Shown here piece by piece: positions 1-18,413 of a stretch of DNA of 64,000 nt. The stretch's first letter is position 1. Every line of letters begins with the position of its first letter. Under the pieces are notes generated by a model. The model was not told the DNA's origin. It did not search any database and saw only the letters and a program-made list of their open reading frames with translations. The stretch is from Natronomonas marina (lineage in GTDB: Archaea > Halobacteriota > Halobacteria > Halobacteriales > Haloarculaceae), in contig NZ_CP101154.1 of assembly GCF_024298905.1 (NCBI RefSeq), forward strand, positions 2,232,001-2,296,000. Direction: 5' to 3'. Made by a program: the position numbers and the translations under genes.

Positions 1-1450
1 TCTCAATAGCAGTCTTGGCCGCCTCAATCTTGTCGGTTACCTCTTCCAAATCCCTGTTCGAGGAACGCTCTTCCCGCTTATTCTCTAACTTCTTGATTTC
101 CTGCTGTTTTTTCTGGATATCCTCTTCCCGATCCTCTATATCCTCTCGAAGATCTCTGATATCGTTTTCAAGCTGCTTGATGTTCTGTTCCAACGTGTCG
201 CGCTCGCTTTCATCCGGAACACCTCCTAACTCATCTAATAGTTCATCACGTCGTTCCTGCTTGCCCTCGATCTTACTCGTAATTTCTTCAAGGCGAACCT
301 GCTTGTCCCCAGGAGCATCTTCGGGTGGTTCAACAGAATCAAGCCTATCTCGCATCTCACGCAGTTCAACAATTCTTTCCGTGATTTGCTCTTTCAAGTC
401 CTCATCGTGGTCCTCGTGATCGTGCTGCTTCAGATATTCAATATCCTCATTTCCACAGATCGGACACTCACCCTCTCGGGCCTCCTCAGTTAATTCGTAG
501 ATAATCTGATTACGCTCAATCTCCGACAGCTGCTTATCGTATTCCTCAATCTGTCTCTCAAGCTCCTGCTTCAAATCGGCTATATCATCAAACAGAATAG
601 CGTAGCGGAGCTCCTTCCACGACTCGTTCAACTCAGAAAGAATCCTGACCTTATCCTGTTGCAGGTCCTGAATCGCCTCTTCTAAGTCGTTGATCTCCTC
701 AATCTTCTCCTCATTTAGCTCTTCTAGCTCCTCACGCGTCTCCTCCAGTATATCATTCTTTTCCTGAATCTTGTCACGATCTTCCTCATTTTGCTCCTTC
801 AGGTCCTTGATATCATCCCGGTACTCCGATATTTCTTGTACAATCTCGTCGCGCTCACTTGCTTCCTCCTCAATCTTATCTCGACGAGGAATCAACCGGT
901 CCTCCAGCAGATCCTCAAGATCGTTCTGAGCATTGATTATTGTTCGATGCTTGAGAACAGTCTCAATCTCACGCTTCACCTGCTGCCCGGCATCTTCCTC
1001 GATCAGCCTCTGGATTCGTTCGCCATCTAAAAAGAAAAAGTCCTTCAGCTGCTCAGGGAGGATCTCTTCGATCTGGTTCTGAGCCTCTTCATCAGAATAG
1101 GTATTGGTATTCCCGATTAATGTAGTCTCTTCGTATGCACGCCCCTGTGTATGGTTGAACCGGTCGATTTCCCGGATAAGAGTGTAGTTCCTCTCACCTT
1201 CTTTGAATTTGATTTCGACCGACATTTTCTCTTCTCGGTCCTGCTTTGCACGTTCGTTCCAGTGCTCCGAATAATTCGTGCCGGGCCCATCTCCACCGTA
1301 TAGACCCCACTGGATCGCTGTATGAAGACTGGTCTTTCCCCCTCCCTGATCACCTTCTACTACGTGTATAGAACCATCGCGGTCGGTGAGGTCCAAGTGA
1401 GAATCCCGGTATGGCCGGAAGTTGACTATCTCTATAGATTGTAGCTTCAT
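1..1450 (-). CDS. Rad50/DndD-like SMC-type ATPase, C-terminus outside window
   Basis: A coiled-coil ABC ATPase that runs off the left edge. The ATG is at 1448-1450 and overlaps the stop of the upstream 60-aa gene (ATGA). Residues 33-40 form a Walker A loop (GDQGGGKT) after a typical Rad50/DndD N-terminus (MKLQSIEIVNFRPY). A DndD-like stretch (QLKDFFFLDGER) follows near residue 130. A long Lys/Glu-rich coiled coil comes next, broken by CPIC at residues 329-332 (nt 455-466), which is placed like a Rad50 zinc hook. The second half of the coiled coil then begins, and the signature and Walker B motifs lie beyond the window. In Dnd, Rad50 and related systems such ATPases bind DNA and power nuclease or helicase partners. 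Here it is the third gene of a coupled operon with a PLD-helicase. The exact system type is uncertain. Confidence 0.82.
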   Translation of the reverse strand, partial: MKLQSIEIVNFRPYRDSHLDLTDRDGSIHVVEGDQGGGKTSLHTAIQWGLYGGDGPGTNYSEHWNERAKQDREEKMSVEIKFKEGERNYTLIREIDRFNHTQGRAYEETTLIGNTNTYSDEEAQNQIEEILPEQLKDFFFLDGERIQRLIEEDAGQQVKREIETVLKHRTIINAQNDLEDLLEDRLIPRRDKIEEEASERDEIVQEISEYRDDIKDLKEQNEEDRDKIQEKNDILEETREELEELNEEKIEEINDLEEAIQDLQQDKVRILSELNESWKELRYAILFDDIADLKQELERQIEEYDKQLSEIERNQIIYELTEEAREGECPICGNEDIEYLKQHDHEDHDEDLKEQITERIVELREMRDRLDSVEPPEDAPGDKQVRLEEITSKIEGKQERRDELLDELGGVPDESERDTLEQNIKQLENDIRDLREDIEDREEDIQKKQQEIKKLENKREERSSNRDLEEVTDKIEAAKTAIE

Positions 1451-1629
1451 TTTTTATCTTCGAGGTAGTTATCTAAGAATCCTTCAAGAGCGTCTTTCTT
1501 TCCGCGACGTCTTGTTTTGTAGAGTTGCTGATCCTCCCAGTCGAGGATTTCCCGTAACATCTGTTTCGTGTGGAAGTCGTCAACTTCCTCATCTAAGATA
1601 TCCTCGATGTCCGGATCAATTCCTGTCAT
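1447..1629 (-). CDS. 60-aa acidic linker protein of the helicase-ATPase operon
   Basis: A very small protein rich in Asp/Glu, with a short basic patch (RRRGKK) near residue 42. It has no recognisable domain. The reading frame is believable because it overlaps the helicase stop at its 5' end (ATGA at 1626-1629) and the ATPase start at its 3' end (ATGA at 1447-1450), so the three genes are translationally coupled. Predicted to be mostly helical. A role as adaptor between helicase and SMC-like ATPase is inference only. Confidence 0.6.
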   Translation of the reverse strand: MTGIDPDIEDILDEEVDDFHTKQMLREILDWEDQQLYKTRRRGKKDALEGFLDNYLEDKK

Positions 1630-3722
1630 TCGAGATCGTACTGCGTGATGGCACGACTTAATCTTAAAATACGGGGATCATTCTCCATCTTATTCGCTGC
1701 ATCGGCATTCATAATACGTAGACGCTGTAGTTCGCGCTCGATAAGCGAAATCTCAGCAGGGACAAGATCAGCCTCCCCTGCTTTGATTTTCTCAAGATCA
1801 ACTGGTAAAGTGACGAAGTCATAGAGATGGGCCGGTTCGTCACTTTCTGCTTCACGCAAGATACGGCCACGTCGCTGCACGGCCTCTCGCTCCGTGGTAG
1901 AACTCGTTACCAATATAGCTGAGTCACACTCAGGTACGTCGATACCCTCCGTAAGGCAATCAATAGAAACCAAGACATCAATTTTCCCACCCTCAAAATG
2001 AGTTAACAGATTCTCTTTTTCGCTGGAGGGGAGACGACCGAGGAATATCGAGACAGTCTTCGTAGTATGATCGTCGACTTCCTCGACAACCTGTTCAGTG
2101 TGCTCTTCAGTATTACAGTAAACTAAGGTCCGTGATCCTGCTTCATCAATCAACGACCTCGTAACATCCAGCTTAGCCGAACACTCCTTAACAATCCGAG
2201 CTCGGTCCATCACCTCAACCTTCAGATCCGGATGCCGATCTGAGACCTCAATCAGAGACTGGTCCTCATAGGACTTGTACGTATTATACAGGTGGGAAAT
2301 CTCGGTAGAATGATCACGGAACCGCTTCCGTTCGCTGTCCGACAAGACAACCGGGTGAATGTGGTAGTCGTACTCGCTAAGCACTTCATATTCTTCTATT
2401 GCATCTTCTATCGATATTTCGTGGATCGTGTCCCCGAAGTATTCGATAATAGCTTCATCGCCGGGATCGTCACGGAATGGCGTAGCACTCAAAGCGATTC
2501 TGGCTCGATCCGCTTCCAGATCCGGGAAGATGGTTCGGCGAAGATTAGAACCCAAGTTGTGTACCTCATCCGCAATCACTGCAATCCCCGACTCCTTAGT
2601 CGAATTCACTCGTTCGATGACGTCTTCCATCGTGCTAGGATGCATTGTTGACACCACGAACAGAGGAGCCGACCGCTCAGTAAAGAGATAGTTCTGCAAA
2701 CGTTCACGCCAATTCGTGTCTCCCAGACACCGGACGATACTGCTCTCCGGGAAGAACCGTGTGATATTGTCACCATCTACCCACTGATTGACCAAGTCCT
2801 TCGTCGGAGCAAAGACAACAACAATATCGGAGTCCTCAACCGCGTGCTGCATTGCCAAAAGCGAGGTCCAGGTTTTCCCTGTACCTGTCGCGTGATCAAG
2901 AACAAGCCGATTCCCGTTATCAAGAAATCTCTCGATAGCCTCTTCCTGATACGGCCGCAGTTCAATATCCTCACGGCCGCTTACCCCGCCACTCCCACCA
3001 GGAATAACTTCATCCCAGTCGGGCTCGGACTCCGGGGCTTTCTCGATTAGATCCCTGCGAAGCGCCTCCGGAAAATCGAACACAGCAGACTCCGGATCCT
3101 CATCATTCCATAGCTGCTCAAACTCATCTATCTGCTTATTCAGCCGCGTTTTCTCATCCCACTCATTTTCCTCAGATTCCACCCAGTTCCGGAAAAGGCT
3201 GAAGCTCTCTCGATTCTGCCGCAATGCTTTGAACGACTCATTGGGCGATCCGGTAATCCCGATTGCGTTATCCTCGTCATCTCTGAAGATAGCAACCTTC
3301 TGATGCCACTCCGCTTCTTGCTGTGTCTGCAGTCTCCCCAATTCATCGGTTACCACACCAACCTTGATCTGCAGAATATCCTCGGCAACCAGCCAAGCCA
3401 AGGCCTCAATAACCTCCTCACGGCTCCCCTGCTTGACCTTCTCCCACTCAATCCGTTCGGACAAAACCTCGTCAGAATGACCCTGATCAATCGCTTCAAT
3501 ATCCTCCTCATAAAGCACAATTCCAGGCAGAAGACGGATTGTCCCGCCGTTCTCGATGAATTCAGGCAGTCCTTCAGAAAACAGCTCCAAAACAGAAGAC
3601 GAAAAGCTGCCGGTAATCCGATCATAGTAAGTCGAGTGCTTGAGCGCAGGAATAAAGAACTCCTCTAAGATATCCACGTGCCCAGGATAGTATCCCTCCC
3701 ACTGGTAATCCCTCAGAGACAT
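1626..3722 (-). CDS. PLD-nuclease-domain SF2 helicase (restriction-type)
   Basis: A 698-aa fusion. The N-terminal domain (about 1-180) resembles a phospholipase-D superfamily nuclease, with a histidine-lysine motif (WHQKVAIF, H140/K142) followed by GSPNES near 158-163. The SF2 helicase core follows: ATGTGKT (278-284), DEVH (385-388), SAT (412-414) and QRRGRILR near 620. PLD-helicase fusions occur in several restriction and phage-defence systems, where the helicase translocates on DNA and the PLD domain cuts. It is the first gene of the overlapping three-gene operon 3722 to 1. The upstream intergenic region is shared with the divergent gene at 3874. The combination with a methylase and an SMC-like ATPase recalls helicase-methylase-ATPase (Hma-like) defence loci, but I cannot confirm the type. 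Confidence 0.85.
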   Translation of the reverse strand: MSLRDYQWEGYYPGHVDILEEFFIPALKHSTYYDRITGSFSSSVLELFSEGLPEFIENGGTIRLLPGIVLYEEDIEAIDQGHSDEVLSERIEWEKVKQGSREEVIEALAWLVAEDILQIKVGVVTDELGRLQTQQEAEWHQKVAIFRDDEDNAIGITGSPNESFKALRQNRESFSLFRNWVESEENEWDEKTRLNKQIDEFEQLWNDEDPESAVFDFPEALRRDLIEKAPESEPDWDEVIPGGSGGVSGREDIELRPYQEEAIERFLDNGNRLVLDHATGTGKTWTSLLAMQHAVEDSDIVVVFAPTKDLVNQWVDGDNITRFFPESSIVRCLGDTNWRERLQNYLFTERSAPLFVVSTMHPSTMEDVIERVNSTKESGIAVIADEVHNLGSNLRRTIFPDLEADRARIALSATPFRDDPGDEAIIEYFGDTIHEISIEDAIEEYEVLSEYDYHIHPVVLSDSERKRFRDHSTEISHLYNTYKSYEDQSLIEVSDRHPDLKVEVMDRARIVKECSAKLDVTRSLIDEAGSRTLVYCNTEEHTEQVVEEVDDHTTKTVSIFLGRLPSSEKENLLTHFEGGKIDVLVSIDCLTEGIDVPECDSAILVTSSTTEREAVQRRGRILREAESDEPAHLYDFVTLPVDLEKIKAGEADLVPAEISLIERELQRLRIMNADAANKMENDPRILRLSRAITQYDLE

Positions 3723-3822
3723 CTACCACCATAGAGTACCCGAACTACAATAGAAATTGCCCTGTTGAGATTCCAGTTATTGATCGGCTTTTGGATTACA
3801 TACCGAGATTCGACCGCCGGAG

Positions 3823-3861
3823 TATTTTTACTTTGACAGAAGCGTTACAATCTCTGGAGGT
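3823..3861 (+). promoter_or_regulatory. Putative TATA box and SD before the 3874 gene
   Basis: An AT-rich TATTTTTA (3823-3830) is followed by GGAGGT (3856-3861), 12 nt before the ATG at 3874. The divergent helicase start at 3722 shares this intergenic region. Confidence 0.4.
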
Positions 3862-3873
3862 ATTTGGACGACT

Positions 3874-4362: not shown

Positions 4363-4411
4363 CCCTCGTCACAGGATGATTGTTGCACAAATAGGAATCA
4401 GCACCAGACGC

Positions 4412-7345
4412 CTAACTGAGGGCTAACTCGTCGATTCCAAGAATCTCTATCTGATCTGCAGTCTCATCTTTACTTCCTTCTTGACTTCCCCCGCGACGCG
4501 GATTGTCCACAGAAAGACCAACGTTGCTCACAATCGGCGGCCACTCCTTCTGGGCGAATTCCTGTCTCCATTTGTTCGTCCCGACAGCCCGTTCGACCCA
4601 ATCAGACAGGCTAATCTTCTCCTTGTAATCGTAATGCCGTCCCCCCTCGTAGACATACAGATCGCCAATAGACGACATCTCAGATTGTGTTATTGCCTGT
4701 TCAAGAAATTCGCTGGTAGAATATACGTTGATAGTCGGATTGATTCCGTAAGAGGCACTGATCCCGTCGGCTGCAATCGACCGTAGGCTTTGCTGAAGAT
4801 TGGATTGAAGTTCCTCGTTCAGATCGTCGTCAACAATATAGTAGATATCCGAGTCGATAAACCGATCCTGATCAGTTGATCGGACGTTTATCTCCCGACA
4901 AAGGTGGAAAGCAGTGTGGATAGTCAGATCATCGTGCGAACCACCATTCGACTCCTTTCCGTGTTTCCGAAGAAGTTCACGGATATGCTTTATTTGCCGT
5001 AGACCTCCGATCACCTTCGCCAGATCTTCCTGTTGCTCAGATGTCTGAGACCGAAGCCGATCCCCGTACTTCTCTGAGATCTCATTCTTGACCGAGTTAT
5101 ATGCCTCACAATACTTTGGGCTCAGCTCGAAGCCGATAGAGCGACGTCCCATAATGTCGGCCACAGCAGGTACCGTTCCCGACCCGGCAAACGGGTCGAG
5201 CGCTATCGAATCCTGTTTCGTGGTCAAGCGTAGAATTCGCTCCACAAGCGCAGTGGGGAACGGTGCTGGATGATCCAGTGAATCAATCCCGCCAAATGAA
5301 CCCTGAGGAGGGGTTACGTGCTCCCAGATATTGTCCGGGACCTTACCTCGTGGATGATATCTTTCCGGATATTCGACCCACCACTGCTTGAACTGTGTCG
5401 GATCTGCTATACGTGTCTTGTCAACGTCAAACTCGAAGGAATCGGTTTTGCTGAAGCACAGGATGTACTCGAAGACGTTCCTGAACTGGCCGTCGCTGTT
5501 GTAGGGTAAGGCCCGGGTCTTGTTCCAGATAACGATATCTTGCAGCAGCCACGAATCCGACTTACGGTTATGGGTGTAGTCACATTCACGGCAGGTGAGT
5601 TGATGATCAAGCTGGTCTAGTCGCAGCGAAGAGCCACACTCAGGACATTGATCTATCCCTGATAAGTTCTGGCAAATAGAAGCAATATCGTTAGGGAGTT
5701 GGACGATTTCACCGTTGTTCTTGAACGTGTTCACCACCACCCAGAGAGTCCCGGAGTCTTTGGTAACGTTGTATACCTGCTGGAAGACCTCTCGCATCTC
5801 CTCAAGATACTGGTCGTATGAACCGCTTTGACCCAGCTGCTCCTCCGCTTCATACCCATAATCCTTGAGGTCGAAGTACGGCGGCGAAGTCAACGTTGCA
5901 TCGACAAAACCGCCTTCATCGGGAACATCATCGAACCCTCGAAGAGTCTCCTCCAGCTTCATCGAATCCTGCTGGTGGATTTCAAAAAGGTCATCAGCAG
6001 CGGAAAGACTGGACGTATCGATAGAGGGGCCAATATCAGCCGCTCCCGAGGAGGGCTCCGTAGAGTCTACCTCTCCAGTTGTGGTGGTTTCAGTCTCCAA
6101 CTCGGACTCGTCATATGCTTCGTCATACCGCTTCCCCTCTGGCTGGTATTCGTCGCTGGAGAGGATTTCACACAGGTTCTGCCATAATGTGCTGTTGGTA
6201 TCGACGCGAACCTTTTTATTGTCCGTTGGAACCTCGTCCGTCCCTTCCTTCGGGAAGATACGGACCTCACCCCCGAAATAGTTGTACTCGTTATTCCTGA
6301 TTAGGTCGAAAAGATCAGTGAATACCGAGGTCATCAAGATACGGCCATTAGCATAGATATCGACACCCTGCTTGGACTGGTTGGGTCTGAATCTGGTTCT
6401 GAACCGTCCACTTGTAGTGAAGAGACCAGGATAGTCGTCGGCCAGCTCACTGGTCATCGCGTCGAAATCAAGCGTTCCGCGTTCGAACTCTACCTGATAC
6501 ACTGCACCGTCATCACCCTCTATTTCAAACGAATCCTCCGCGTAAGGTGTCGGCGGGTCTTGATCGTTCGACACGTACTTGGGGAAGATTGGAATAACAG
6601 GTAAAGAGCCGCTCTTCCCGTTGGTCTCATCCTCGTAGTCGATGTATATCTCGTTCTCAGAGTGAACGGAGAGCAGCCGACGGAACTTGACTCCGAGCAG
6701 CTCTCGTAGTGTCTGTGCTTTGATTTCGAGTGATTTGGCTGATGGCCAGACGTCGTTATCGAACTTGGGTCGGCTACAGCTGACGTGAACACGGGTTCCA
6801 CTTTCGTATTCACCAAGGCTGTGATTACCGATACCTAACCCATCAATCCAGGCGTCATCATCGGCGCGAGAGATAGGCAGATCCGCGGTGATAGGCCCGT
6901 CAACCCGGTATCTCTCTGATCCACTGGCCTGGGTTACCAGTGTAAACCATTCGCTCTCGGGTGTGGGATTAGCCTGCGACAGAGTTTCCTCGAACCAAGC
7001 AAGGCTGGCTTTCAGACCCCAGCCAACGTTGTTCAGGATACCGTTGGATTCCTTCTTGTTCCCGGTTCGGAAGATTTCATTCTGAAGAGCTTCCCTGCTG
7101 ATACCTGGTCCATTATCGGCAATAGTCGTTCGGACAGTGTTCTCGGTGCGTCGAAGCGTGATTACTATCTTAATCGGGGTCTCCGGATCATCGAAGTATG
7201 CCTCGTTCTTCACCACGGACGAGACCGAGTTGTCGATTAGTTCCTGGAGCGCATCCTGATACCTTTCGTGCTGCTTTGCCATTCCCGAGGCCAACGTGGA
7301 GAGTTCTACCTCGGAATCGCAGGTCGCCCTGGTCTGACGACTCAT
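4412..7345 (-). CDS. MORC-type GHKL ATPase fused to DNA methyltransferase
   Basis: A 977-aa fusion. Residues 33-115 carry GHKL ATPase motifs: N-box ELIDN (35-39), DNGPG (77-81) and GWGLKAS (108-114). A MORC-like transducer region follows (GTRVHVSC near 183-190, GVDIYANGRIL near 327-337). An acidic Thr/Ser linker (about 403-452) leads to a beta-order DNA methyltransferase with catalytic TSPPY (486-490), an inserted zinc ribbon (C567, C570, C585, C588) and the AdoMet site DPFAGSGT (717-724). TSPPY is usual for N4-cytosine or related amino-methyltransferases. The C-terminal approximately 200 residues form a shared extra domain (SIGDLYVY, PPIVSNVGL). Iyer, Abhiman and Aravind (2008) described MORC ATPases in prokaryotic restriction-modification loci. 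It is homologous along its length to the two separate proteins at 7613 and 9573. Confidence 0.88.
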   Translation of the reverse strand: MSRQTRATCDSEVELSTLASGMAKQHERYQDALQELIDNSVSSVVKNEAYFDDPETPIKIVITLRRTENTVRTTIADNGPGISREALQNEIFRTGNKKESNGILNNVGWGLKASLAWFEETLSQANPTPESEWFTLVTQASGSERYRVDGPITADLPISRADDDAWIDGLGIGNHSLGEYESGTRVHVSCSRPKFDNDVWPSAKSLEIKAQTLRELLGVKFRRLLSVHSENEIYIDYEDETNGKSGSLPVIPIFPKYVSNDQDPPTPYAEDSFEIEGDDGAVYQVEFERGTLDFDAMTSELADDYPGLFTTSGRFRTRFRPNQSKQGVDIYANGRILMTSVFTDLFDLIRNNEYNYFGGEVRIFPKEGTDEVPTDNKKVRVDTNSTLWQNLCEILSSDEYQPEGKRYDEAYDESELETETTTTGEVDSTEPSSGAADIGPSIDTSSLSAADDLFEIHQQDSMKLEETLRGFDDVPDEGGFVDATLTSPPYFDLKDYGYEAEEQLGQSGSYDQYLEEMREVFQQVYNVTKDSGTLWVVVNTFKNNGEIVQLPNDIASICQNLSGIDQCPECGSSLRLDQLDHQLTCRECDYTHNRKSDSWLLQDIVIWNKTRALPYNSDGQFRNVFEYILCFSKTDSFEFDVDKTRIADPTQFKQWWVEYPERYHPRGKVPDNIWEHVTPPQGSFGGIDSLDHPAPFPTALVERILRLTTKQDSIALDPFAGSGTVPAVADIMGRRSIGFELSPKYCEAYNSVKNEISEKYGDRLRSQTSEQQEDLAKVIGGLRQIKHIRELLRKHGKESNGGSHDDLTIHTAFHLCREINVRSTDQDRFIDSDIYYIVDDDLNEELQSNLQQSLRSIAADGISASYGINPTINVYSTSEFLEQAITQSEMSSIGDLYVYEGGRHYDYKEKISLSDWVERAVGTNKWRQEFAQKEWPPIVSNVGLSVDNPRRGGSQEGSKDETADQIEILGIDELALS

Positions 7346-7612
7346 AGTTGTCTCCGGGGAGAGGAAGATTCACCAGTTGAGAGCCGCTTAAAAGCAATCT
7401 TGTTGAGCGCCAACGCGTTATCGGAGATAAATCCGGGCTGGCGGTCCGAAGCAACCATTATAGCAGACTCAAATTGATCTAGATGTTTTAAGTTTTCTGA
7501 TCGTTCCTGACACGTTTCTCGGACCAGTTCCCTAGTTACAGTGCTGTAGGCCTGTGGATAGAGGCCAAGGGTTCTTTGATGTTATATGGGTGGAGGTTAT
7601 CTACTACGTACG
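7346..7612. other. Divergent intergenic region between the two MORC/methylase operons
   Basis: This 267-bp gap separates the two oppositely directed operons, so both promoters should lie here. No clear gene is seen. An ATG at 7586 is in frame with the methyltransferase, but the better homology-supported start is 7613. GGTGGAGGT (7588-7596) may serve as ribosome binding site for the latter at long spacing. No strong inverted repeat was noted. Confidence 0.35.
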
Positions 7613-9172
7613 ATGGGTGAGACTTCGGATTCCGTCTTTGATATCCATCAAGCTGATGCGCGGAATCTAAAATCTGAGCTCGAAAAATGGTTTGAATCAA
7701 CTGATGGAGTGGTAGATGCAATCATTACTTCGCCTCCTTACGCCGATATGCAGGACTACGGCGACCAGGAAGGACAAATAGGCGAACAACTGTATGAGGA
7801 CTTTCTAGAAGACCTACGTACCATTTTCAAGCAGTGCTACAATGTGGCCTCTGACGAGAGTACACTGTGGATTGTCACAGATACCTTTCGTCGGAACAAC
7901 CGTATTGTCCGTCCTCCGTTCGATATCGCTGATGAGTTGGAAAATCTGGAAAAGCGCCGTCTCTGTCCTGACGAAGACTGTAATGGCCGGCTTCAGCGCG
8001 ACAGAGGAACCGGAATACTGCACTGCGACATCTGTGGTGAAGAGGTCAATCCTCTCGATGAATCTTGGCAGCTGAAAGATCATCTTATATGGAACAAGCA
8101 ACGGACGCGTCCCTGGCGAAAAAAAGGCCAGCTACGGAACATCTACGAACATATCTCGATGTACGCCAAGACGGATGACTACAAATACAACGCTGACTCC
8201 ATCCGTATTCAAGATACAGACGAATTCGGCCGATGGTGGGTAAATTACCCAGAGAGATACCATCCGAAAGGAAAATTACCTGAGAACATATGGGAGTTTC
8301 CGATCCCCAAACAGGGAGAGTGGGGGCCCAAACTCAACTACCATCCTAGCCCGTTTCCGGAACCTCTCGTCGAACGAATCATCAAATTAGCCACCGACCC
8401 CGGCGACACCGTCTTAGACCCGTTTGCCGGCGTTGGATCCACACTGGCAGTGGCGGAACGACTAAACCGTCGTCCGATTGGATTCGAACTCAATGAAGAG
8501 TTCATTGAACACTATCATAATCACGTCCTACCTTCGGTGGGTAAGCAGAAGACCGAACAGCAAACCCTAGTTGATGAGGACTCTAGACACAATCTCGAAT
8601 ACCTGATCTGGACACTTCGAATTCACAAATACGCTTTCCGACTACAAAGAGAACTGGTTAGCAACGAAGAAATCGGCATCCAACGGGAAGATTTCAACTC
8701 TGTGTTGGCGGTGACTGACCCGGAAACTATCGGTACCGATACCCGGCCCCAGACACAGCTGTACTACCTCGGCACCGACAAAGTCCGAAATCTCAAAGAC
8801 ACATTCGATCAAGCAGCAGAAAACTTGATCTCTGCAAACAGGGGGTCTGGAGACTATTACGAAGTTGACTTCGAACTAAACGCATATCCCGTCGAGGACT
8901 GGTTCGAAGGGACTGTTTCCCAAGTACTCGATCTCTCTTCTATTGATCATCTATATGTCTATTCTGACGGTGTCCACCACTGGTATCAAGCCGAAATCAC
9001 GTTCGACCAGTGGAAATCGATGGTCGCTAACAGCGAGTGGAAACGATACCAGAGTACTCACTGGACACCCCTTGTCTCGAATCTTGGTATCCAAGTTGAA
9101 AATCCTCAACAGGAGGTCGAGAAGGTTGATAAACACCAGACGGTACTTAGAAATTTTAATGAGGATGTATGA
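7613..9172 (+). CDS. Stand-alone DNA methyltransferase, paralogue of the fused one
   Basis: About 519 aa, or 528 if started at 7586. Motif order is that of beta-class amino-methyltransferases: TSPPY (39-43), an inserted zinc ribbon (C118, C123, C138, C141), then DPFAGVGS (269-276). The protein aligns with the methyltransferase half of the 4412-7345 fusion almost end to end. Shared blocks include WWVNYPERYHPKGKLP, the region before the AdoMet motif, and the C-terminal block SIDHLYVY...TPLVSNLGI. It probably modifies host DNA for self/non-self discrimination; the target base and site are unknown. It is the first gene of a plus-strand operon continuing with a MORC ATPase, McrB-like and McrC-like genes, but about 400 bp separate it from the next start, so a second promoter is possible. 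Confidence 0.88.
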   Translation: MGETSDSVFDIHQADARNLKSELEKWFESTDGVVDAIITSPPYADMQDYGDQEGQIGEQLYEDFLEDLRTIFKQCYNVASDESTLWIVTDTFRRNNRIVRPPFDIADELENLEKRRLCPDEDCNGRLQRDRGTGILHCDICGEEVNPLDESWQLKDHLIWNKQRTRPWRKKGQLRNIYEHISMYAKTDDYKYNADSIRIQDTDEFGRWWVNYPERYHPKGKLPENIWEFPIPKQGEWGPKLNYHPSPFPEPLVERIIKLATDPGDTVLDPFAGVGSTLAVAERLNRRPIGFELNEEFIEHYHNHVLPSVGKQKTEQQTLVDEDSRHNLEYLIWTLRIHKYAFRLQRELVSNEEIGIQREDFNSVLAVTDPETIGTDTRPQTQLYYLGTDKVRNLKDTFDQAAENLISANRGSGDYYEVDFELNAYPVEDWFEGTVSQVLDLSSIDHLYVYSDGVHHWYQAEITFDQWKSMVANSEWKRYQSTHWTPLVSNLGIQVENPQQEVEKVDKHQTVLRNFNEDV

Positions 9173-9572
9173 CATTCCCTATCTATAGGTCCTCTTCAAT
9201 ATAATCAGTTGGAATTCCCCTGTTGATCAGCTCCTTCTCTTTACTATAGTATCGGTCTGGTAGGGGGTGTCTGATCACTCTAGCGCTATGAACACAACCT
9301 GCGGCAACTGCCACTTTTTCGCCCGTGTCCGGGCACTTTTGTTCGGATTTATCTGGTGGGAAGTGGCAACAACTTTGAAGAACTACACCGAGGGCACGGC
9401 AGATGATATTCTTGTATTTTTCGAAGGCACCGCTCCTTATCGGCTTTCGATGAGCACACAAAGACAAAGTAGGGGGGGCTATTTCAACATATATGATACT
9501 GAAACCGGCTCGCGTTCGCTCTCCAGTCCACACCTCATCCCCGCTAGGGAGAGTTGGAGGGTGGGTGAAAGC
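9173..9572 (+). other. 400-bp gap upstream of the MORC gene
   Basis: Both strands are open over much of this stretch, but neither reading has recognisable domains. The plus-strand frame continues into the MORC gene from an ATG at 9267. The extra 102 residues have no counterpart in the fused paralogue, while the ATG at 9573 follows GGAGG (9556-9560), so I treat 9267-9572 as leader. The minus-strand reading (9183-9653) has a CPDTGEK segment of unknown value. Confidence 0.35.
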
Positions 9573-11597
9573 ATGAGCAATACTGGTAATTCCGAGGCGA
9601 TCAATACTGAATCTGATCTCCAGCAGCTGAAGCCCCTCCTCGCTAAACAGCACGATAACTATCGCGAGATGCTGCAGGAGCCGATTGATAATTCTATCTC
9701 TGCGACTGTGGAAAACGAACTGTACTACAACGATCCCGAGCCATTTATGATTCAGCTTGATTTTGAGCGCCGACCAGAAACCTGCCGTGTGATCGTGTCT
9801 GATGCCGGTTGTGGGATGTCTCGAGAAGTCATCCGCGATTATGTATTTAGCACCGGCGATACGAACTACTCGGATGGCATTCTCAACAATATCGGCGCTG
9901 GGTTGAAAGCTAGTATTTGTTGGTGTGAGGAATCACTGAGCAGTGCACAAGGACCCTCCGGATATGATAACCGGTTCCATGTGCTTTCCCGAGAACCAGA
10001 TGAAGACCAGTATCAACGGGTCGATGGTCCTGTCGAACGTGGGATTGAGGTTTACAATTCAGATGATACTGAGCTTTGGGAGGAGGGAGCCGATGAGTTA
10101 CCCCAGACAGAGCACGGGACACGAGTCCATTTGACCTGTGCTGTGCAGGACTTCAATGAAGGAGTTGCACCAAGAGCTACTAATCTCGAGACGAAGATAC
10201 GATATCTACAAGAGGAACTCGGGGTTCGTTTCCAGCATCTTCTCAATGCTCATGAGGATAACTCGATTATCATTACGTACCGCGACATTGAAGACGGAGA
10301 TATCGTAGACGAGGATACACTCGAGGTCACACCCATTGAGCCTCGTTTCAAAGCGAAACCTTCAGACACTGATGTTGGCGAGATCACAGATTATAATTCG
10401 TTTGAGGATTTTGGGGAAGCGGTAGCTGGCATCTCCACGGAAGATATTGGATCAGAACAGTACGGTTGGCATACAACCACAATCTCGTTCGACAACACCG
10501 GAGAAACTTTCTATGTCTCATATGAGTACGGTGAACTTGACTTGGACGCGATGTTTGAGGAAACAAATGCCGAAGGACGGAATTTGAAAATCACCTCTCC
10601 AAGCACCAAGGGGTTCCGTTGGCGATATAAGCGTAATCAGGAAGGTACAGGGATCGATGTATACGGAAACGGCCGGATACTCAACTCGGCAGAGTGGCCT
10701 TTTGATCTCACATACAATAACCAGTATAACGGGTACTGTGGTATGTTGCGGGTTATTCCTGCAGACCCAGAACAGTACGAGCTTCCAACGACCAACGACA
10801 AAACTGGGGTTGAGAAGAGTTCAGACCTTTGGCAGGAGCTCTCCGAGTGGCTGAATGACTCCAAACGAACTCCAGTTGCTACCTACGAGGAAGGCGGAAG
10901 CGGTAGTGGCGGCGGTAGTGGCGGAAGCGGTACCAGCGGCAGTAGTGGCGGAAGCGGTGGTGGCGGCGGTAGTGGCGGAAGCGGTACCAGCGGCAGTAGT
11001 GGCGGAAGCGGTGGTGGCGGCGGTAGTGGCGGAAGCGGTGGTGGCGGCGGTAGTGGCGGAAGCGGTGGTGGCGGCGGTAGTGGCGGAAGCGGTACCAGCG
11101 GCAGTAGTGGCGGAAGCGGTGGTGGCGGCGGTAGTGGCGGAAGCGGTACCAGCGGCAGTAGTGGCGGAAGCGGTGGTGGCGGCGGTAGTGGCGGAAGCGG
11201 TGGTGGCGGCGGTAGTGGCGGAAGCGGTGATAGCGGCAGTAGTAGCGGCGGTGATACTGATAACCGAATTCAGACTGTGATCAGCAAAGTTAGAGACGGA
11301 GGCGGGGAAAACATCCAACGCAATAGTGAGGTTGAAGAAGTAATAATCGACCTCATTTCACAGCATCCAGGAGCGGGCGATGTACTCCACATCGTCGTTG
11401 ACGGTAATGCAACTCCAGAAGATATCTATCGGGCAATGCTTTACCAAGACCACTACAAGCGAACCTCCGATGATTATGAAGGCACAGTGATTTGGGCGAC
11501 CGATGCGTCAGAAATTGCCCAGAGAGATATTGAATCTGTCAAGAGTCGTAATGACGAGCACGGAGATCCGTATTCTATCCAACTTAATATCGACTAA
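9573..11597 (+). CDS. MORC-type GHKL ATPase with Gly/Ser repeat linker
   Basis: 674 aa from the ATG at 9573, preceded by GGAGG. GHKL motifs: EPIDN (36-40, a Pro variant of the N-box that keeps Glu and Asn), DAGCG (77-81) and GAGLKAS (108-114). The middle part matches the MORC half of the 4412-7345 fusion (GTRVHLTC, ELGVRFQHLL, GIDVYGNGRIL, ELPTTNDKT). Residues about 441-557 are 13 copies of a nine-residue Gly/Ser unit. A compact C-terminal domain of about 110 residues (HIVVDGNATPEDIY) follows and is not recognised. MORC/GHKL ATPases dimerise on ATP binding and can clamp or compact DNA. The stop overlaps the McrB-like ATG at 11597 (TAATG), so the two are coupled. Confidence 0.86.
   Translation: MSNTGNSEAINTESDLQQLKPLLAKQHDNYREMLQEPIDNSISATVENELYYNDPEPFMIQLDFERRPETCRVIVSDAGCGMSREVIRDYVFSTGDTNYSDGILNNIGAGLKASICWCEESLSSAQGPSGYDNRFHVLSREPDEDQYQRVDGPVERGIEVYNSDDTELWEEGADELPQTEHGTRVHLTCAVQDFNEGVAPRATNLETKIRYLQEELGVRFQHLLNAHEDNSIIITYRDIEDGDIVDEDTLEVTPIEPRFKAKPSDTDVGEITDYNSFEDFGEAVAGISTEDIGSEQYGWHTTTISFDNTGETFYVSYEYGELDLDAMFEETNAEGRNLKITSPSTKGFRWRYKRNQEGTGIDVYGNGRILNSAEWPFDLTYNNQYNGYCGMLRVIPADPEQYELPTTNDKTGVEKSSDLWQELSEWLNDSKRTPVATYEEGGSGSGGGSGGSGTSGSSGGSGGGGGSGGSGTSGSSGGSGGGGGSGGSGGGGGSGGSGGGGGSGGSGTSGSSGGSGGGGGSGGSGTSGSSGGSGGGGGSGGSGGGGGSGGSGDSGSSSGGDTDNRIQTVISKVRDGGGENIQRNSEVEEVIIDLISQHPGAGDVLHIVVDGNATPEDIYRAMLYQDHYKRTSDDYEGTVIWATDASEIAQRDIESVKSRNDEHGDPYSIQLNID
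10893..11243 (+). repeat. 13 tandem 27-bp units encoding a Gly/Ser linker
   Basis: The coding DNA consists of 27-bp units translating as GGSG followed by TSGSS or GGGGS. The order of the two unit types is irregular, the first unit is GGSGSGGGS and the last GGSGDSGSS. The units stay in frame and are nearly identical in DNA, which suggests recent slippage or unequal exchange. Both strands therefore show artificial open frames here. Confidence 0.9.
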
Positions 11598-13699
11598 TGC
11601 CCCGACATAGTACCGTCTACCCGATGCCCGGTGGTGTAGAAAGCCAGGACGAGACTATTTTGGAAGCTGTAAATTTCGTGGACTCTGAGTCTCCTACATA
11701 TGAGGCCCTTGTCAGCTGGATCCTCGAACAGGGGGAGATGACCAGTGAGGAATCCGCAGAGCGCCGGATTTCTTTTCTTAAACAGGCGGATCTTCTCTCA
11801 CAGAATGTTGAACAGATGCGGGTCGGTAGTAATGGATACCAACTTCTCGATGCCGGTGACAAACAACAAGCACTCTACACTATTCTGGATGATGAATATC
11901 TTGGTATATCAACACTCCTGAAACTAGTCGATGACTATGACACAAAAGAACAACTTCATCAGGCACTTATTGAGAACCTCGATCAAGATGTCGATTGGAG
12001 AGAACTTCATCAAACCAACCACCGGCTCAATTATCTCCGAAGTATAGGGTATGTCGACCTCCATGAGGACGACACTTATGCGCCTACACCCGCCGGCCGT
12101 GCCCGACTAAGCGAGACGGATACGCCTGACTCCCAGTATAGTGAACCACCAACACCGACGGAATTGATGTCTTCGATACGGGATGATTCTGGCACGACGC
12201 CGGATTTCTACTGGGTGAACCATGACAATACAGGCCACAGCTCTACTAATTATATTCGGCCACGTCTCGATACCGATACTGGTGTCTCTCCCCGTGACAT
12301 AGGACCCTCAGATATCATCTTTCGGTATGAGGATGGCGAAGTGATCGGATATTCTACGCTTCGTGAACCAGGTACAATCACGACCGAGTCGGGAACAGAG
12401 TACTATCGGACTCCTGTATTTTTCCGAGAATTTTCAGCGTCAGTTCCTCTGTCTTCGGTTATTGGAGCCTTGACATCGTCAGAGCATCTATCGGAGGCGG
12501 TACTTGAGGATCCTTCATATCCTTTTACAGAAACTGGTCTCCGAAATATCTCGCTCGGCGTGCTGCCATCGGGGGCGGCGAAAACTATCTTCGAGATGGG
12601 AGGTGAACTTGACCGGTATGCTGACGTAGATGTTGAACTTGAGCTTTCAGCTTCTCAATTGCCCGAAAAAGACGATTTCGACCTGCACTTCCCCGAAGAA
12701 CCCTTCGATGCGATGATGGAGGAGATTGAGGAAGCACTGCTGAACGATCAACACCTTATTTTGATCGGCCCGCCCGGTTCAGGGAAGACGAAATTAGCGC
12801 AAACCATTGCTGGTGAAGTGAATAATCGTGATGGGTACGCTTTGGTGACGGCCACAGCAGATTGGTCGACCTTCGATACTGTAGGCGGGTACCAACCAGA
12901 TAGAGAGGCACAGCTCGATTTTATCCCTGGAGTTTTTCTCTCCCGATTTCAACGATCAGATGCGGCCCCTGCAAACGAATGGCTAATTGTCGACGAGATT
13001 AACCGCGCGAATATTGATAAAGCGTTTGGCAGCTTTTTTTCCGCCCTCTCTGGTGACGATGTTACCACCGCGTTCAAATCTAGCGACGGCAACGAAATCG
13101 AGATACTCGGGAGTGGCGATGCCGACCAGATAATCCGCCCGAGTCGCTACTACATCCCGAAAACGTGGCGTCTCATTGCGACGATGAACACACATGACAA
13201 GATGTCGTTATACGATATGAGCTACGCGTTCATGCGCCGCTTTGCGTTCATCCACGTCGGTGCCCCAGACGCAGGAGAAATCAGCACAGATCTTATTAAA
13301 GAATATGTCTCAGAGTGGTCTCAACTATCGGTTAGTGAAAAGGGTTCTGGCGACGCCGAAAACGAATATGGGGAAGAACAAGGATTAGTAATACATGAAG
13401 ATGGATTGGATGATATCGCCTCGTTCTGGGAAACGTTGCAGCCACATCGAACTATTGGCCCGGCGATTATCCGGAACCTCAGCCTAGCTCTCGCACGTCA
13501 GGGCCCCGATACTGCCGATTTGACCGGACCACTGAAAATGTACGTTCTTCCGCAATTGGAGGATCTCCCGGAGAATACGCAGATAGACGCGATTAATGCA
13601 TTATTGAATAATGATGAAATTCCGCTTGCACGGGAACGATTCAGGCGTTTTGCCAGCGACTACTTTGGTATCGATAGAGAACGATTCACTACTGGGTAA
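11597..13699 (+). CDS. McrB-type AAA+ GTPase with winged-helix and EVE/PUA-like regions
   Basis: 700 aa. The C-terminal half has the McrB signature: GPPGSGKT (391-398), DEINRA (466-471) and MNTHDKMSLYD with MRRF (530-550). In McrBC-type systems this is the NTP-driven motor that assembles as hexamers and activates the nuclease subunit. The N-terminal 180 residues look like winged-helix segments. Residues about 200-320 (FYWVNHDN, PSDIIFRYEDGEVIGYS, TPVFFREFS) resemble the PUA/EVE fold that reads modified bases in other McrB proteins; that call is from pattern only. The start overlaps the MORC stop, and the next gene begins 5 bp after its stop. With the MORC and methylase genes it forms one operon. 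Confidence 0.85.
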   Translation: MPRHSTVYPMPGGVESQDETILEAVNFVDSESPTYEALVSWILEQGEMTSEESAERRISFLKQADLLSQNVEQMRVGSNGYQLLDAGDKQQALYTILDDEYLGISTLLKLVDDYDTKEQLHQALIENLDQDVDWRELHQTNHRLNYLRSIGYVDLHEDDTYAPTPAGRARLSETDTPDSQYSEPPTPTELMSSIRDDSGTTPDFYWVNHDNTGHSSTNYIRPRLDTDTGVSPRDIGPSDIIFRYEDGEVIGYSTLREPGTITTESGTEYYRTPVFFREFSASVPLSSVIGALTSSEHLSEAVLEDPSYPFTETGLRNISLGVLPSGAAKTIFEMGGELDRYADVDVELELSASQLPEKDDFDLHFPEEPFDAMMEEIEEALLNDQHLILIGPPGSGKTKLAQTIAGEVNNRDGYALVTATADWSTFDTVGGYQPDREAQLDFIPGVFLSRFQRSDAAPANEWLIVDEINRANIDKAFGSFFSALSGDDVTTAFKSSDGNEIEILGSGDADQIIRPSRYYIPKTWRLIATMNTHDKMSLYDMSYAFMRRFAFIHVGAPDAGEISTDLIKEYVSEWSQLSVSEKGSGDAENEYGEEQGLVIHEDGLDDIASFWETLQPHRTIGPAIIRNLSLALARQGPDTADLTGPLKMYVLPQLEDLPENTQIDAINALLNNDEIPLARERFRRFASDYFGIDRERFTTG

Positions 13700-13704
13700 C
13701 TTGG

Positions 13705-15129
13705 ATGGTCAACCATTCCTCCGCGTCTAAGACTCCTGCAACCCAGTTAATTAAGGATACTGCTGGATCGTTCCATACTTATATTGGAAAGGGAGTGAGT
13801 GTTCCTGGAATCGGTGATATCGATACGGATCCTTCGCTGAATGTGAATGATCTTGAATCTCTCCTACGAGTTCATTTCGTCCTTACGGGTTCGACGTTAG
13901 CCACAGGAACCCATAGCTCTCCCGAGGTAGTTCCGTTCATCAAAGCACTCCCCGACCATATCCGCCGCCTCAACCGCTCGACCTATCAAGAATCGGAACT
14001 GGTTGCTGGCGGTGTTGACGGGCGGATCGATTGGGGAGAAACAGTCGAGATGTACAGCCGGCGAGGGTTCGTTGACGGGACAAAATTCATTTGTAATCAA
14101 CATCGGACCGAGTACGACACCCCGGAAAACCAGGTTCTCAAGCGGCTTTTACTGGAAATTCATTCTGTCTTTCAGAACGAACTCGAAGCCACCACTGATG
14201 ATCCAGAGAGTTATCAGTGGCTGTCTGAATGGTTGAAAAAACCAGGATTACTTACGACGCTGACCGAAACACTTTATCAGAATGTATATTTAGATGATGT
14301 TTCCCCGTCAGAGCGCATCCCTCAACGTATCCTTCGTACGGTCAAATCCTCTCGTCAATCGTTGTATCGGGATGCGGCCTCCCTGCTTGAGCAATACTAT
14401 TCCTTTCAAAACCGGAACTTTGAGCGAGAGAAGGCAACAGATATCCTTCAGAATGTCTACATCCGACCGAATACCGATAATGGTGGGAGACTCTTCGAGA
14501 TCTATTGGCTATTCAAGATACTTGATGAAGTAACAGGTGGGGAACTTCAGATTATTCGATCAGGAACCGATCTTATCGCACGTTGGGAGGCTGGTGGTTC
14601 CCAGTACGACCTTTACCACCACACTACAGGGCCAGATATGCTATCATTCTCGGTCCACTCAGCCGACGTAGAGTCACAACTTCATCACCTTGAGGACCAC
14701 TTCGAGTCGATGAATTACTTCCAGCGAACCCATACAGTACAACGAGATACCGCAGAGATTGCTGAGACTGCGTTAGGGTCGAGTACTCATAAGACTCTCT
14801 GGACTGGCGTCCCGGATATCTTGCTCGTCCGGACCAATCCGGATAATGAGCTTACGGGCATACTGATTGGCGAAGTGAAATATTCTCGTGACGTTCAGTA
14901 CATCAAAGATGGAGTTGAAGAACTCCTCGAGTATCTTTATCATCTCCATTACAATGGAGACTATATCGTAACACCTTCTCCAACCGACGCTAATTTCGAG
15001 AGCGAAATTCCCGTCGTGGGGGCCCTCTTCGTGGACAAACTTCCTCCAGAGACGGATGACAGTGAACTCCCAATTTCATTAGTTGAGTATGGGGACTCGT
15101 ATATTCCGTTCCCAGACAATTCGTCATAA
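13705..15129 (+). CDS. McrC-like PD-(D/E)xK nuclease (DUF2357-like)
   Basis: 474 aa. The first 250 residues resemble the DUF2357/McrC-type N-terminal region (GGVDGRIDWGET, then FICNQHRTEYDTPENQVLK). The nuclease core is D371 in GVPDILL, followed by E390 and K392 in IGEVKYS, with a downstream GVEELLEYLYHL helix as in McrC proteins. It should supply the DNA cleavage activity of the plus-strand operon, driven by the McrB-like protein 5 bp upstream. It is the last gene of the operon and is followed by a convergent small gene. The catalytic set is intact, so the system is probably functional. Confidence 0.82.
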   Translation: MVNHSSASKTPATQLIKDTAGSFHTYIGKGVSVPGIGDIDTDPSLNVNDLESLLRVHFVLTGSTLATGTHSSPEVVPFIKALPDHIRRLNRSTYQESELVAGGVDGRIDWGETVEMYSRRGFVDGTKFICNQHRTEYDTPENQVLKRLLLEIHSVFQNELEATTDDPESYQWLSEWLKKPGLLTTLTETLYQNVYLDDVSPSERIPQRILRTVKSSRQSLYRDAASLLEQYYSFQNRNFEREKATDILQNVYIRPNTDNGGRLFEIYWLFKILDEVTGGELQIIRSGTDLIARWEAGGSQYDLYHHTTGPDMLSFSVHSADVESQLHHLEDHFESMNYFQRTHTVQRDTAEIAETALGSSTHKTLWTGVPDILLVRTNPDNELTGILIGEVKYSRDVQYIKDGVEELLEYLYHLHYNGDYIVTPSPTDANFESEIPVVGALFVDKLPPETDDSELPISLVEYGDSYIPFPDNSS

Positions 15130-15237
15130 GAACGGGAAACGCTCTCTGTCATCGAGTATTATTCGGACCGCTACGGTTTCACAGCGCCAGCTCTACCCGA
15201 CCAACAACTTGCTTCCGAAGAGCGAGGGAAATGTCCC

Positions 15238-15450
15238 TCATTCATTATTTTCACACACTGCTTCACGTAGTTCTTCCAGAAGATCCTCTCGATTCTCAGC
15301 TAAAATTTCAACATCCTCATCTACATTCTCTATCTTCGTACGGATACGGCTTACAACTCTATAGCGATAGTTGTCAGAGACTTCTGCCTCACCATCTAAG
15401 ATTTCACGTTCACGCTCGGTGAGGAGCCCCCGATACTGATCATCAACCAT
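15238..15450 (-). CDS. Small haloarchaeal LTEREREIL regulator-like protein
   Basis: About 70 aa from the ATG at 15450; a GTG at 15501 would add 17 residues without family-like sequence. The core LLTEREREIL...VSDNYRYRVVSRIR is common among small haloarchaeal proteins from plasmids and viruses, and looks like a helix-turn-helix. It ends with EELREAVCE. No experimental function is known to me. The upstream DNA contains a cluster of AGT(A/G)ACT boxes and a 12-bp palindrome. This would fit autoregulation, and possibly control of the divergent RAMP operon at 15654. It is convergent with the McrC-like gene. Confidence 0.65.
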   Translation of the reverse strand: MVDDQYRGLLTEREREILDGEAEVSDNYRYRVVSRIRTKIENVDEDVEILAENREDLLEELREAVCENNE

Positions 15451-15476
15451 AATTGTCGATTGGTCGCCTCCACCAT

Positions 15477-15565
15477 AGTAACTCTTACTGGCCACAGCCA
15501 CTTATTACTATATATAGTCATGATAACTGTAAACAGTAACTATTAAGTGACTGCATATAGTAACT
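15477..15565. promoter_or_regulatory. Cluster of AGTRACT boxes and palindromes
   Basis: AGTAACT or AGTGACT occurs at 15477-15483, 15535-15541, 15546-15552 and 15559-15565. A perfect palindrome ACTATATATAGT lies at 15507-15518. ACTGT/ACAGT flank AA at 15526-15537. The AT-rich stretch lies between the small regulator gene (minus) and the RAMP operon (plus) and probably contains both promoters and operator sites. Confidence 0.55.
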
Positions 15566-15615
15566 ACTAACGTGGAAAATTGGCTCCTCGGGGCGTGAGA
15601 AGTGTCGGAAATGCC

Positions 15616-15653: not shown

Positions 15654-16259
15654 GTGAAAGAACCCATGAACCATTCAAAGCTACCAACTCAAGAGTCCAT
15701 CGACGATCAGTTAATTGAAGAAATATCACAATTACAACAAGATGCGCTCGGGGAAGGGGCCGCGGCTTGCGAAGCCTGCGGTGAAAAACTGCGGGAAGGC
15801 GAACCGATCGTCGCGTTCGCCTTCCGACCGGCCGACCAACCGGCCTTCGAGATCGGGCACGTGAAATGCACTGAGTGTCGGCACGAGCCGACGGAGTACT
15901 TTACGCTCGGCGTGTGCGAACTCGTGCTTGACGGCCGCGTCGGGACCTGTGCTGACCCTGCAACACAGTCGTCGTGGCCGGTCCTGCTGGCACCACGCCC
16001 ACGCGCGGTGAGTCCGGCGGACACCACAACAGTACAACCCCTACCGGGAACCACGTGGTTCCGACACCCAATTGCGCGGAGCGACGTCTTCGCTGCGGCG
16101 GATCGCCCATCGACGCGCAAACCTTGGCAGCGACCAGTGGTGCGAGGTGACAACGCAGACCCTGATAGCACACCTGAACCGGATTCGAAGGGTGACGACA
16201 CGGTCGAAACTAGTGCCCCTCGCGCACCTGATGGCGGCCAGCCGGGGGGTGCTCGCTGA
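15654..16259 (+). CDS. Zinc-finger protein, first gene of the RAMP (HRAMP-like) operon
   Basis: 201 aa from a GTG at 15654; an ATG at 15666 (residue 5) is an alternative start. The N-terminal half carries a zinc-ribbon pattern: CEAC near residue 35 and CTEC near residue 72. It is followed by a Pro/Ser/Thr-rich tail that is probably disordered. The next gene, a Cas7-like RAMP, starts 2 bp after its stop, so it belongs to the same operon. Type IV CRISPR loci also begin with a zinc-finger protein (Csf1), but I see no alignment that proves a relation; that idea is inference. Confidence 0.6.
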   Translation: MKEPMNHSKLPTQESIDDQLIEEISQLQQDALGEGAAACEACGEKLREGEPIVAFAFRPADQPAFEIGHVKCTECRHEPTEYFTLGVCELVLDGRVGTCADPATQSSWPVLLAPRPRAVSPADTTTVQPLPGTTWFRHPIARSDVFAAADRPSTRKPWQRPVVRGDNADPDSTPEPDSKGDDTVETSAPRAPDGGQPGGAR

Positions 16260-16261
16260 CG

Positions 16262-17233: not shown

Positions 17234-17499
17234 CCCGAGACGCAGATTGGGACCCCAACCCGGAACCGGACCCTGACCGCGCGTGTGCTCGGGACTGGCA
17301 GCCAGTCGAAGCGCCCAAGCGCCGTCGGGAGCCGAAACGCGAGGACGAACCGGTGCAGCGGTCGTCAGAAGCAGCGGACGATGCGTCCGGCCTTGACCCT
17401 GACCCGGCAGCACGAGCACACGACACCCAAGAGCGCGACCACGCCGCGCGTCAAGCCCGTGGAGACGTTGAGCCGGACGTAGGTGGCCGGCATGGTTGA
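17230..17499 (+). CDS. Small charged protein of the RAMP operon
   Basis: 89 aa, GTG start overlapping the Cas7-like stop (GTGA) and ending 8 nt inside the next gene. Composition is strongly Asp/Arg/Pro/Ala and probably disordered. No domain was recognised. It could be a real small subunit or an intervening frame tolerated in very GC-rich DNA. The double overlap argues for a gene, the composition against. Confidence 0.35.
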   Translation: MTRDADWDPNPEPDPDRACARDWQPVEAPKRRREPKREDEPVQRSSEAADDASGLDPDPAARAHDTQERDHAARQARGDVEPDVGGRHG

Positions 17500-18370: not shown

Positions 18371-18413
18371 TTCCCATCACGAACTGGAGGCGAAACGAGG
18401 GGGTGTGTGACCG

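What the first reader, a model, noticed from the sequence alone, without database searches (positions are those of the whole stretch)
7613..15129. Four-gene methylase-MORC-McrB-McrC defence operon
Start/stop overlap and close spacing join the MORC, McrB-like and McrC-like genes, with a zinc-ribbon methyltransferase ahead. MORC ATPases in prokaryotic restriction loci are known from comparative genomics (Iyer, Abhiman, Aravind 2008), but I know of no experiments on this set. A GHKL clamp plus an NTP-driven McrBC motor could load on unmodified or modified DNA and cut it.
Basis: partly seen in the sequence, partly recalled or inferred. Interest (0 to 1): 0.8.

Follow-up and report, generated by a model that had tools for sequence, protein, structure and literature searches.

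The report
GHKL-McrBC cassette beside methylation-type Pbe system
In a salt-loving archaeon, a three-gene DNA-cutting cassette (an ATP-driven clamp plus a two-part nuclease) sits beside a separate anti-virus system that marks the cell's own DNA with methyl groups; the two seem to travel as a pair, but the four-gene unit first proposed is drawn across the border between them.

Summary
The four genes are real and intact, but the proposed four-gene operon is mis-drawn. MORC/GHKL (start more likely 9573 than 9267), McrB-like and McrC-like form a tight three-gene operon. Three results show this. DNA identity of 92-94% to a relative (G269) runs from window base 1 to 9156 (except one insertion at 3763-4413) and stops 16 bases before the methyltransferase stop codon. 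The methyltransferase has close orthologues in 9 genomes, always beside the GHKL-methyltransferase fusion and Pbe, but beside this GHKL-McrBC cassette in only 3. The GHKL tree shows the modules have reassorted. Even so, all five intact GHKL-McrBC cassettes found lie beside Pbe and this rare zinc-ribbon methyltransferase family. Best reading: a methylation-coupled Pbe island with an exchangeable GHKL-McrB-McrC nuclease arm, probably LlaJI-like (cutting DNA that lacks the self methyl mark); a modification-dependent (Type IV) action is the main rival. I found no description of this cassette in the papers searched.

The parts
9573..11597 (+). GHKL (MORC/paraMORC-like) ATPase, 674 aa: GHKL + S5-type transducer, Gly/Ser linker, C-terminal alpha-beta-beta-beta-alpha-beta domain without a conserved (D/E)xK
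   Evidence: start 9573 rather than GTG 9267 from the alignment with G205
10893..11248 (+). 27-bp tandem repeat (13 copies) coding the Gly/Ser linker of the GHKL protein; linker length and composition vary among orthologues
11597..13699 (+). McrB-like AAA+ NTPase, 700 aa: N-terminal double winged-helix reader domain (aa 1-180), Walker A GPPGSGKT, NxxD signature MNTHDK
   Evidence: overlaps the GHKL stop
13705..15129 (+). McrC-like nuclease, 474 aa, invariant PD...GEVK; haloarchaeal McrC family without a Pfam model
   Evidence: AlphaFold model poor and uninformative
7613..9172 (+). zinc-ribbon beta-class amino DNA methyltransferase (TSPPY ... DPFAGxG); belongs to the Pbe/GHKL-MTase block, not to the McrBC operon
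4412..7345 (-). GHKL ATPase fused to a zinc-ribbon methyltransferase, 977 aa; divergent partner of the MTase at 7613
   Evidence: orthologues in 9 genomes plus a Halococcus dombrowskii plasmid
1626..3722 (-). PbeA: PLD-like domain + superfamily II helicase
   Evidence: PADLOC PbeA E 4e-238; Pfam ResIII, Helicase_C
1447..1629 (-). PbeB-like 60-aa protein
   Evidence: position between PbeA and PbeC; PbeB described as 66 aa
1..1450 (-). PbeC (DndD-like CxC ABC ATPase), continues upstream outside the window (genome 2231531-2233450)
   Evidence: PADLOC PbeC 4e-169 for the G269 orthologue. PbeD and a wH-HNH endonuclease follow outside the window in L074

Best explanation
The site is a composite defence island of two separable modules. 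Module A (genome just upstream of the window to window 9172): a Pbe-type (CxC ABC ATPase/DndE) antiviral system whose self mark is base methylation by two zinc-ribbon amino-methyltransferases, one of them fused to a GHKL ATPase, instead of DndCDEA phosphorothioation. Module B (9573-15129): a three-gene nuclease cassette in which a GHKL ATPase dimer works as an ATP-gated clamp or checkpoint, McrB forms the NTP-driven ring with a double winged-helix reader, and McrC cuts. I think module B most likely works like LlaJI: it attacks incoming DNA that lacks the methyl mark placed by module A's methyltransferases, so A's marks protect the host from B. Shown: gene content, motifs, operon structure, module border, reassortment, constant co-location. 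Inferred: complex formation, the direction of methylation sensitivity, cleavage, antiviral effect.
For: Module border: 92-94% DNA identity to G269 over 1-3762 and 4414-9156, ending 16 bases before the MTase stop, then none until 15613. Orthologues of the MTase at 50% identity or more occur in 9 genomes, all beside the GHKL-MTase fusion and Pbe; only 3 carry the same GHKL-McrBC cassette. The Halococcus dombrowskii plasmid and the Halobaculum rubrum plasmid (= G139) show MTase + GHKL-MTase + Pbe without McrBC. DndC is absent from the genome. Module B is conserved as GHKL-McrB-McrC in G000, G205, G352 and G373, with a diverged rearranged form in G269 that has the same C-terminal GHKL domain. The four solo GHKLs are one clade (100/100), and the window's solo GHKL is sister to G205's while its fusion is sister to G269's, so the modules reassort. 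All five intact cassettes lie beside Pbe and a member of the zinc-ribbon MTase family, which was found in only 13 genomes; the only copy without that MTase (G042) is truncated. Catalytic motifs are invariant. LlaJI: two MTases + McrB-like specificity subunit + McrC-like nuclease restrict unmethylated DNA.
Against: The McrB reader domain (double winged helix) is also the N-terminus of an HNH endonuclease, and 18 of 18 sampled HNH copies stand alone with no associated MTase recognised within about 8 kb (one locus has an unrelated distant NPPY-motif ORF); two wH-McrBC pairs likewise. That pattern fits Type IV, modification-dependent enzymes. The five cassettes represent perhaps three independent lineages (G352/G373 and window/G205 are pairs), so the association is less strong than 5 of 5. 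McrC assignment rests on a remote profile match and a motif; its fold could not be confirmed. No methylation or infection data exist.
Confidence: 0.45

Rival explanations
1. Type IV reading: the GHKL-McrB-McrC cassette recognises modified invading DNA through the McrB winged-helix domain and cuts it, independently of the neighbouring methyltransferases; co-location with Pbe only reflects defence-island clustering.
For: Canonical McrBC is modification-dependent. The same reader domain occurs in 133 of 391 genomes, mostly in orphan effectors without an MTase. Two-gene McrBC relatives of this McrC family without GHKL were the rule in 14 sampled loci.
Against: All five GHKL-bearing cassettes sit beside a rare MTase family and Pbe, and the cassette in the same slot of G269 was exchanged for another GHKL-McrBC rather than lost.
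Confidence: 0.35
2. One reading: MTase + MORC + McrB + McrC is one self-contained four-gene restriction-modification operon.
For: Same strand, consecutive order, and a LlaJI-like gene list.
Against: 400-nt gap; the homology border lies at the MTase stop; the MTase is always paired with the GHKL-MTase and usually lacks this cassette; the modules have different phylogenies.
Confidence: 0.08
3. Abortive guard: the cassette responds to loss or invasion of epigenetic state (for example inhibition of the MTases by a virus) and destroys the host chromosome.
For: Killing of cells by McrBC on epigenetic methylation is on record for E. coli (PMC2614495, abstract); a suicide mode was proposed for Pbe-type systems (PMC10853773).
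Against: No toxin or trigger gene identified here; nothing in the sequence separates it from ordinary restriction.
Confidence: 0.12

Closest known systems
DndCDEA-PbeABCD (CxC ABC ATPase-DndE system), Xiong 2019 PMC6459918; reappraisal PMC10853773
   Same: PbeA (PLD + SF2 helicase), PbeB-size protein, PbeC ATPase and PbeD in the same order
   Different: No DndC in the genome; two zinc-ribbon MTases, one fused to GHKL, take the place of the phosphorothioate genes. Pbe with methylases is already on record in both papers, but GHKL/MORC and McrBC are not mentioned in PMC10853773
LlaJI restriction-modification system (PMC1459862)
   Same: Two methyltransferases plus McrB-like AAA+ subunit plus McrC-like PD-(D/E)xK subunit
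   Different: LlaJI has 5mC-MTases in one operon and no GHKL; here the MTases are TSPPY amino-MTases in a separate module and a GHKL gene heads the McrBC operon
McrBC Type IV restriction, NxxD clade (E. coli McrBC; census PMC11090510)
   Same: McrB NxxD motif, McrC adjacent, PD-(D/E)xK
   Different: Winged-helix N-terminal reader, McrC not matched by PF10117, GHKL subunit in the operon
MORC/paraMORC loci (Iyer 2008, PMC2292703)
   Same: GHKL + S5 ATPase in restriction loci, some with HKD(PLD)-SF2 helicases and methylases
   Different: No McrB/McrC mentioned there; MORC motif matched except its polar position
VcSduA, GHKL-Shedu (PMC12137116)
   Same: GHKL ATPase controlling a PD-(D/E)xK nuclease, anti-phage activity lost on GHKL or nuclease mutation
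   Different: Nuclease is fused DUF4263; here the nuclease is a separate McrC-like subunit driven by McrB

Membership tests
PbeABCD / CxC-DndE system (left module) | PbeA: PLD-like + SF2 helicase | tested here: met
   PADLOC PbeA 4e-238; Pfam ResIII, Helicase_C, weak PLDc_2
PbeABCD / CxC-DndE system (left module) | PbeC ATPase with small PbeB and PbeD beside it | tested here: met
   PbeC 4e-169 (G269 orthologue), DndD-like match 1.2e-47 in the own genome, 60-aa and about 136-aa neighbours
DndCDEA-PbeABCD (phosphorothioate type) | DndC / phosphorothioation genes present | tested here: not met
   TIGR03183 absent from the genome
McrBC | McrB-like AAA+ with Walker A/B and NxxD motif | tested here: met
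   GPPGSGKT, WLIVDEINR, MNTHDK; NF008457 2.5e-14
McrBC | McrC partner with PD-(D/E)xK | tested here: met
   invariant PD371, E390, K392
McrBC | McrC homology (PF10117 / DUF2357-type) | tested here: inconclusive
   No PF10117 hit; hhalign to canonical McrC 83% probability, E 9e-6, 127 columns; no fold match, model poor
MORC family (Iyer 2008) | GHKL N, G1, G2 motifs plus S5-type domain | tested here: met
   Foldseek to Hsp90, SMCHD1, TopoVIB, MutL, MORC3
MORC family (Iyer 2008) | GhXhhpXXRhl motif | tested here: not met
   GIDVYGNGRIL / GVDVYANGRIL: every position fits except the polar one; hence 'MORC/paraMORC-like'
LlaJI-type R-M | two MTases linked to McrB-like and McrC-like genes | tested here: met
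   both MTases and McrBC within 11 kb, but in separable modules
LlaJI-type R-M | cleaves unmethylated DNA, methylation protects | not testable with these tools
   needs experiment
Type IV (modification-dependent) restriction | recognises modified DNA, no partner MTase | tested here: inconclusive
   reader domain usually in orphan effectors, but GHKL-McrBC always near an MTase
CoCoNuT | NxD motif and coiled-coil McrB | tested here: not met
   NxxD motif; definition

The most novel reading that the evidence does not exclude
The two GHKL proteins of the island are halves of one methylation checkpoint: the GHKL of the methyltransferase fusion and the solo GHKL of the McrBC operon pair (or compete) on DNA, read methylation status, and hand unmarked DNA either to methylation or to Pbe and McrBC attack. 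This would be a MORC-type ATPase acting as the switch between marking and cutting.
Probability: 0.2. Interest if true: 0.8.

Novelty: new variant of a known kind. Interest (0 to 1): 0.5.

Why it matters
It adds a GHKL-McrB-McrC cassette and a GHKL-methyltransferase fusion to the known parts of methylation-coupled Pbe systems, of which only the phosphorothioate form has been tested in the papers read. It gives a compact archaeal setting in which to ask what MORC-type ATPases do in restriction, a question open since 2008, with a built-in comparison: the same island with and without the cassette in related species.

Tried and rejected
(1) Four-gene operon: rejected on the homology border, distribution and tree. 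(2) 'The winged-helix N-terminus is special to this island' (after): rejected by a profile search, 133 of 391 genomes, and by 18 of 18 orphan HNH copies. (3) Fold confirmation of McrC: model too poor, no match; sequence search of the PDB empty. (4) The GHKL C-terminal domain as an active nuclease: predicted alpha-beta-beta-beta-alpha-beta but no conserved (D/E)xK; treated as non-catalytic. (5) PADLOC, Pfam and NCBIfam name no system for the three-gene operon. (6) genome contigs gave only the G205 genome, Halorubrum halodurans; plasmids gave two GHKL-MTase loci, phages none. (7) A literature search for MORC + McrB in defence found no paper; MORC/paraMORC searches led to Iyer 2008 and VcSduA.

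Full report
OBSERVATION. The four ORFs exist and are intact. The MTase (7613-9172) is a beta-class amino-methyltransferase (N6_N4_Mtase, 1.8e-44) with TSPPY, DPFAGxG and four invariant zinc-ribbon cysteines. The GHKL gene is best read from ATG 9573: the frame is open from GTG 9267, but the nearest orthologue begins at the position of 9573. Its stop overlaps the McrB start (TAATG), and McrC starts 5 nt after McrB. So three genes form a tight operon; the MTase is about 400 nt upstream.

DOMAINS. GHKL: N-box QEPIDNS, G1 DAGCGM and G2 GILNNIGAGLK are conserved in all relatives. The AlphaFold model (mean pLDDT 64) matches Hsp90, SMCHD1, topoisomerase VI-B, MutL and MORC3, that is, GHKL plus S5-type transducer. 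The MORC-specific motif is met except at the polar position. A 27-bp tandem repeat codes a Gly/Ser linker before a C-terminal domain shared only by the solo GHKLs. McrB: Walker A, Walker B, NxxD motif, and a double winged-helix N-terminus (Pfam matches to the stand-alone and HNH-fused forms are weak HTH_45 hits). McrC: no Pfam family, but invariant PD...GE(V/C)K, a weak NCBIfam McrC match, and a profile match to canonical McrC including E. coli K-12 McrC (83% probability, E 9e-6). The McrC fold could not be confirmed.

On the left, divergent from the MTase, is a 977-aa GHKL-methyltransferase fusion (4412-7345), followed by PbeA (PADLOC 4e-238), a 60-aa PbeB-like protein, PbeC and PbeD, and an HNH endonuclease outside the window. 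DndC is absent from the genome, so this is a Pbe locus without phosphorothioation genes.

WHERE THE BORDER LIES. Against G269 the window is 94% identical at DNA level over 1-3762 and 92% over 4414-9156, then unrelated until the first gene of the next system at 15613. In G269 the same slot holds a different McrB-McrC-GHKL set (27-32% protein identity for McrC and McrB; GHKL 30%), arranged otherwise. The MTase has orthologues (50% identity or more) in nine genomes, all with the GHKL-MTase fusion and Pbe beside it, also on a Halococcus dombrowskii plasmid (the Halobaculum rubrum plasmid is G139). Only three of the nine carry the same GHKL-McrBC cassette, and G269 carries the diverged one. The solo GHKLs form one clade (100/100); the window's solo GHKL pairs with G205's while its fusion pairs with G269's. 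The two modules have therefore been recombined.

YET THEY KEEP COMPANY. Solo GHKL-McrB-McrC was found in 4 of 391 genomes plus the diverged G269 form and a truncated copy in G042. All five intact ones lie within a few kb of Pbe; roughly forty genomes carry a full-length PbeA (my count). All five also lie near a member of the zinc-ribbon MTase family, seen in 13 genomes in all. The truncated G042 copy is the only one without that MTase. These five are not all independent (G352/G373 and window/G205 are sister pairs), so I treat this as good but not overwhelming support for a functional link.

MECHANISM. I weigh two directions of methylation sensitivity. For a LlaJI-like action (cuts unmethylated DNA, self protected by the neighbouring MTases): the constant company of the MTases, and the experimental precedent of LlaJI, two MTases plus McrB-like specificity subunit plus McrC-like nuclease. 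For Type IV: the reader domain of McrB is widespread (133 of 391 genomes) and was found mostly in orphan effectors; 18 of 18 sampled HNH copies have no recognised partner MTase within about 8 kb (MTases were recognised there by motif and similarity only, so some may be missed; one locus has a distant ORF with an NPPY motif). I lean to the first at 0.45 against 0.35. The GHKL role as an ATP-gated clamp or switch is inferred from the GHKL/S5 fold and from VcSduA, where mutation of either the GHKL or the nuclease abolished defence.

NOVELTY. MORC and Pbe genes in restriction loci, Pbe with methylases, and McrBC with MTases are each known. The GHKL-McrB-McrC operon and the GHKL-MTase fusion with Pbe are not mentioned in Iyer 2008 (McrB/McrC 0 hits) or in PMC10853773 (MORC, GHKL, McrB 0 hits), and a paper search for the combination returned none. 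That is absence in the held library, not proof of novelty. I rate it a new variant of a known kind.

Noticed in passing
window 15654-21217: A haloarchaeal RAMP (HRAMP-like) CRISPR derivative is directly downstream: Cas7-like 16262, Cas5/Cmr3-like 18414, an exonuclease-like gene 19352 and an HNH gene 20045. Homologues stand beside Dnd-Pbe loci in G344 (L121) and G188 (L123), so HRAMP and Pbe may be regular neighbours.
   Followed up: partly
window 3763-4413: A 650-bp insertion relative to G269, carrying a 162-aa ORF (3874-4362, + strand) with no family match, between PbeA and the GHKL-MTase fusion.
   Followed up: partly
L074:7977-9020 (-), L067:18664-19656; window 11597-12142: A double winged-helix domain shared by the McrB N-terminus, a highly conserved orphan HNH endonuclease (61-82% identity among sampled haloarchaea), a stand-alone 183-aa gene in G022 and long McrBs; it has no strong Pfam match and looks like a general haloarchaeal restriction reader.
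   Followed up: partly
L061:19939-20193: A remnant (84 aa, 60% identical) of the GHKL-MTase N-terminus between the McrC and PbeA genes of G205, a trace of recombination between the modules.
   Followed up: no
L062:5187-6809 and equivalents in G210 and G373: Homing-endonuclease-repeat (HNH_repeat) genes sit between PbeD and the GHKL-MTase fusion in several Halorubrum-type Pbe loci; a Dam gene flanks the same loci.
   Followed up: no
window 1-15600: GC 0.47-0.52 against 0.65-0.72 in the last third of the window: the whole Pbe/GHKL-McrBC island is compositionally foreign.
   Followed up: no
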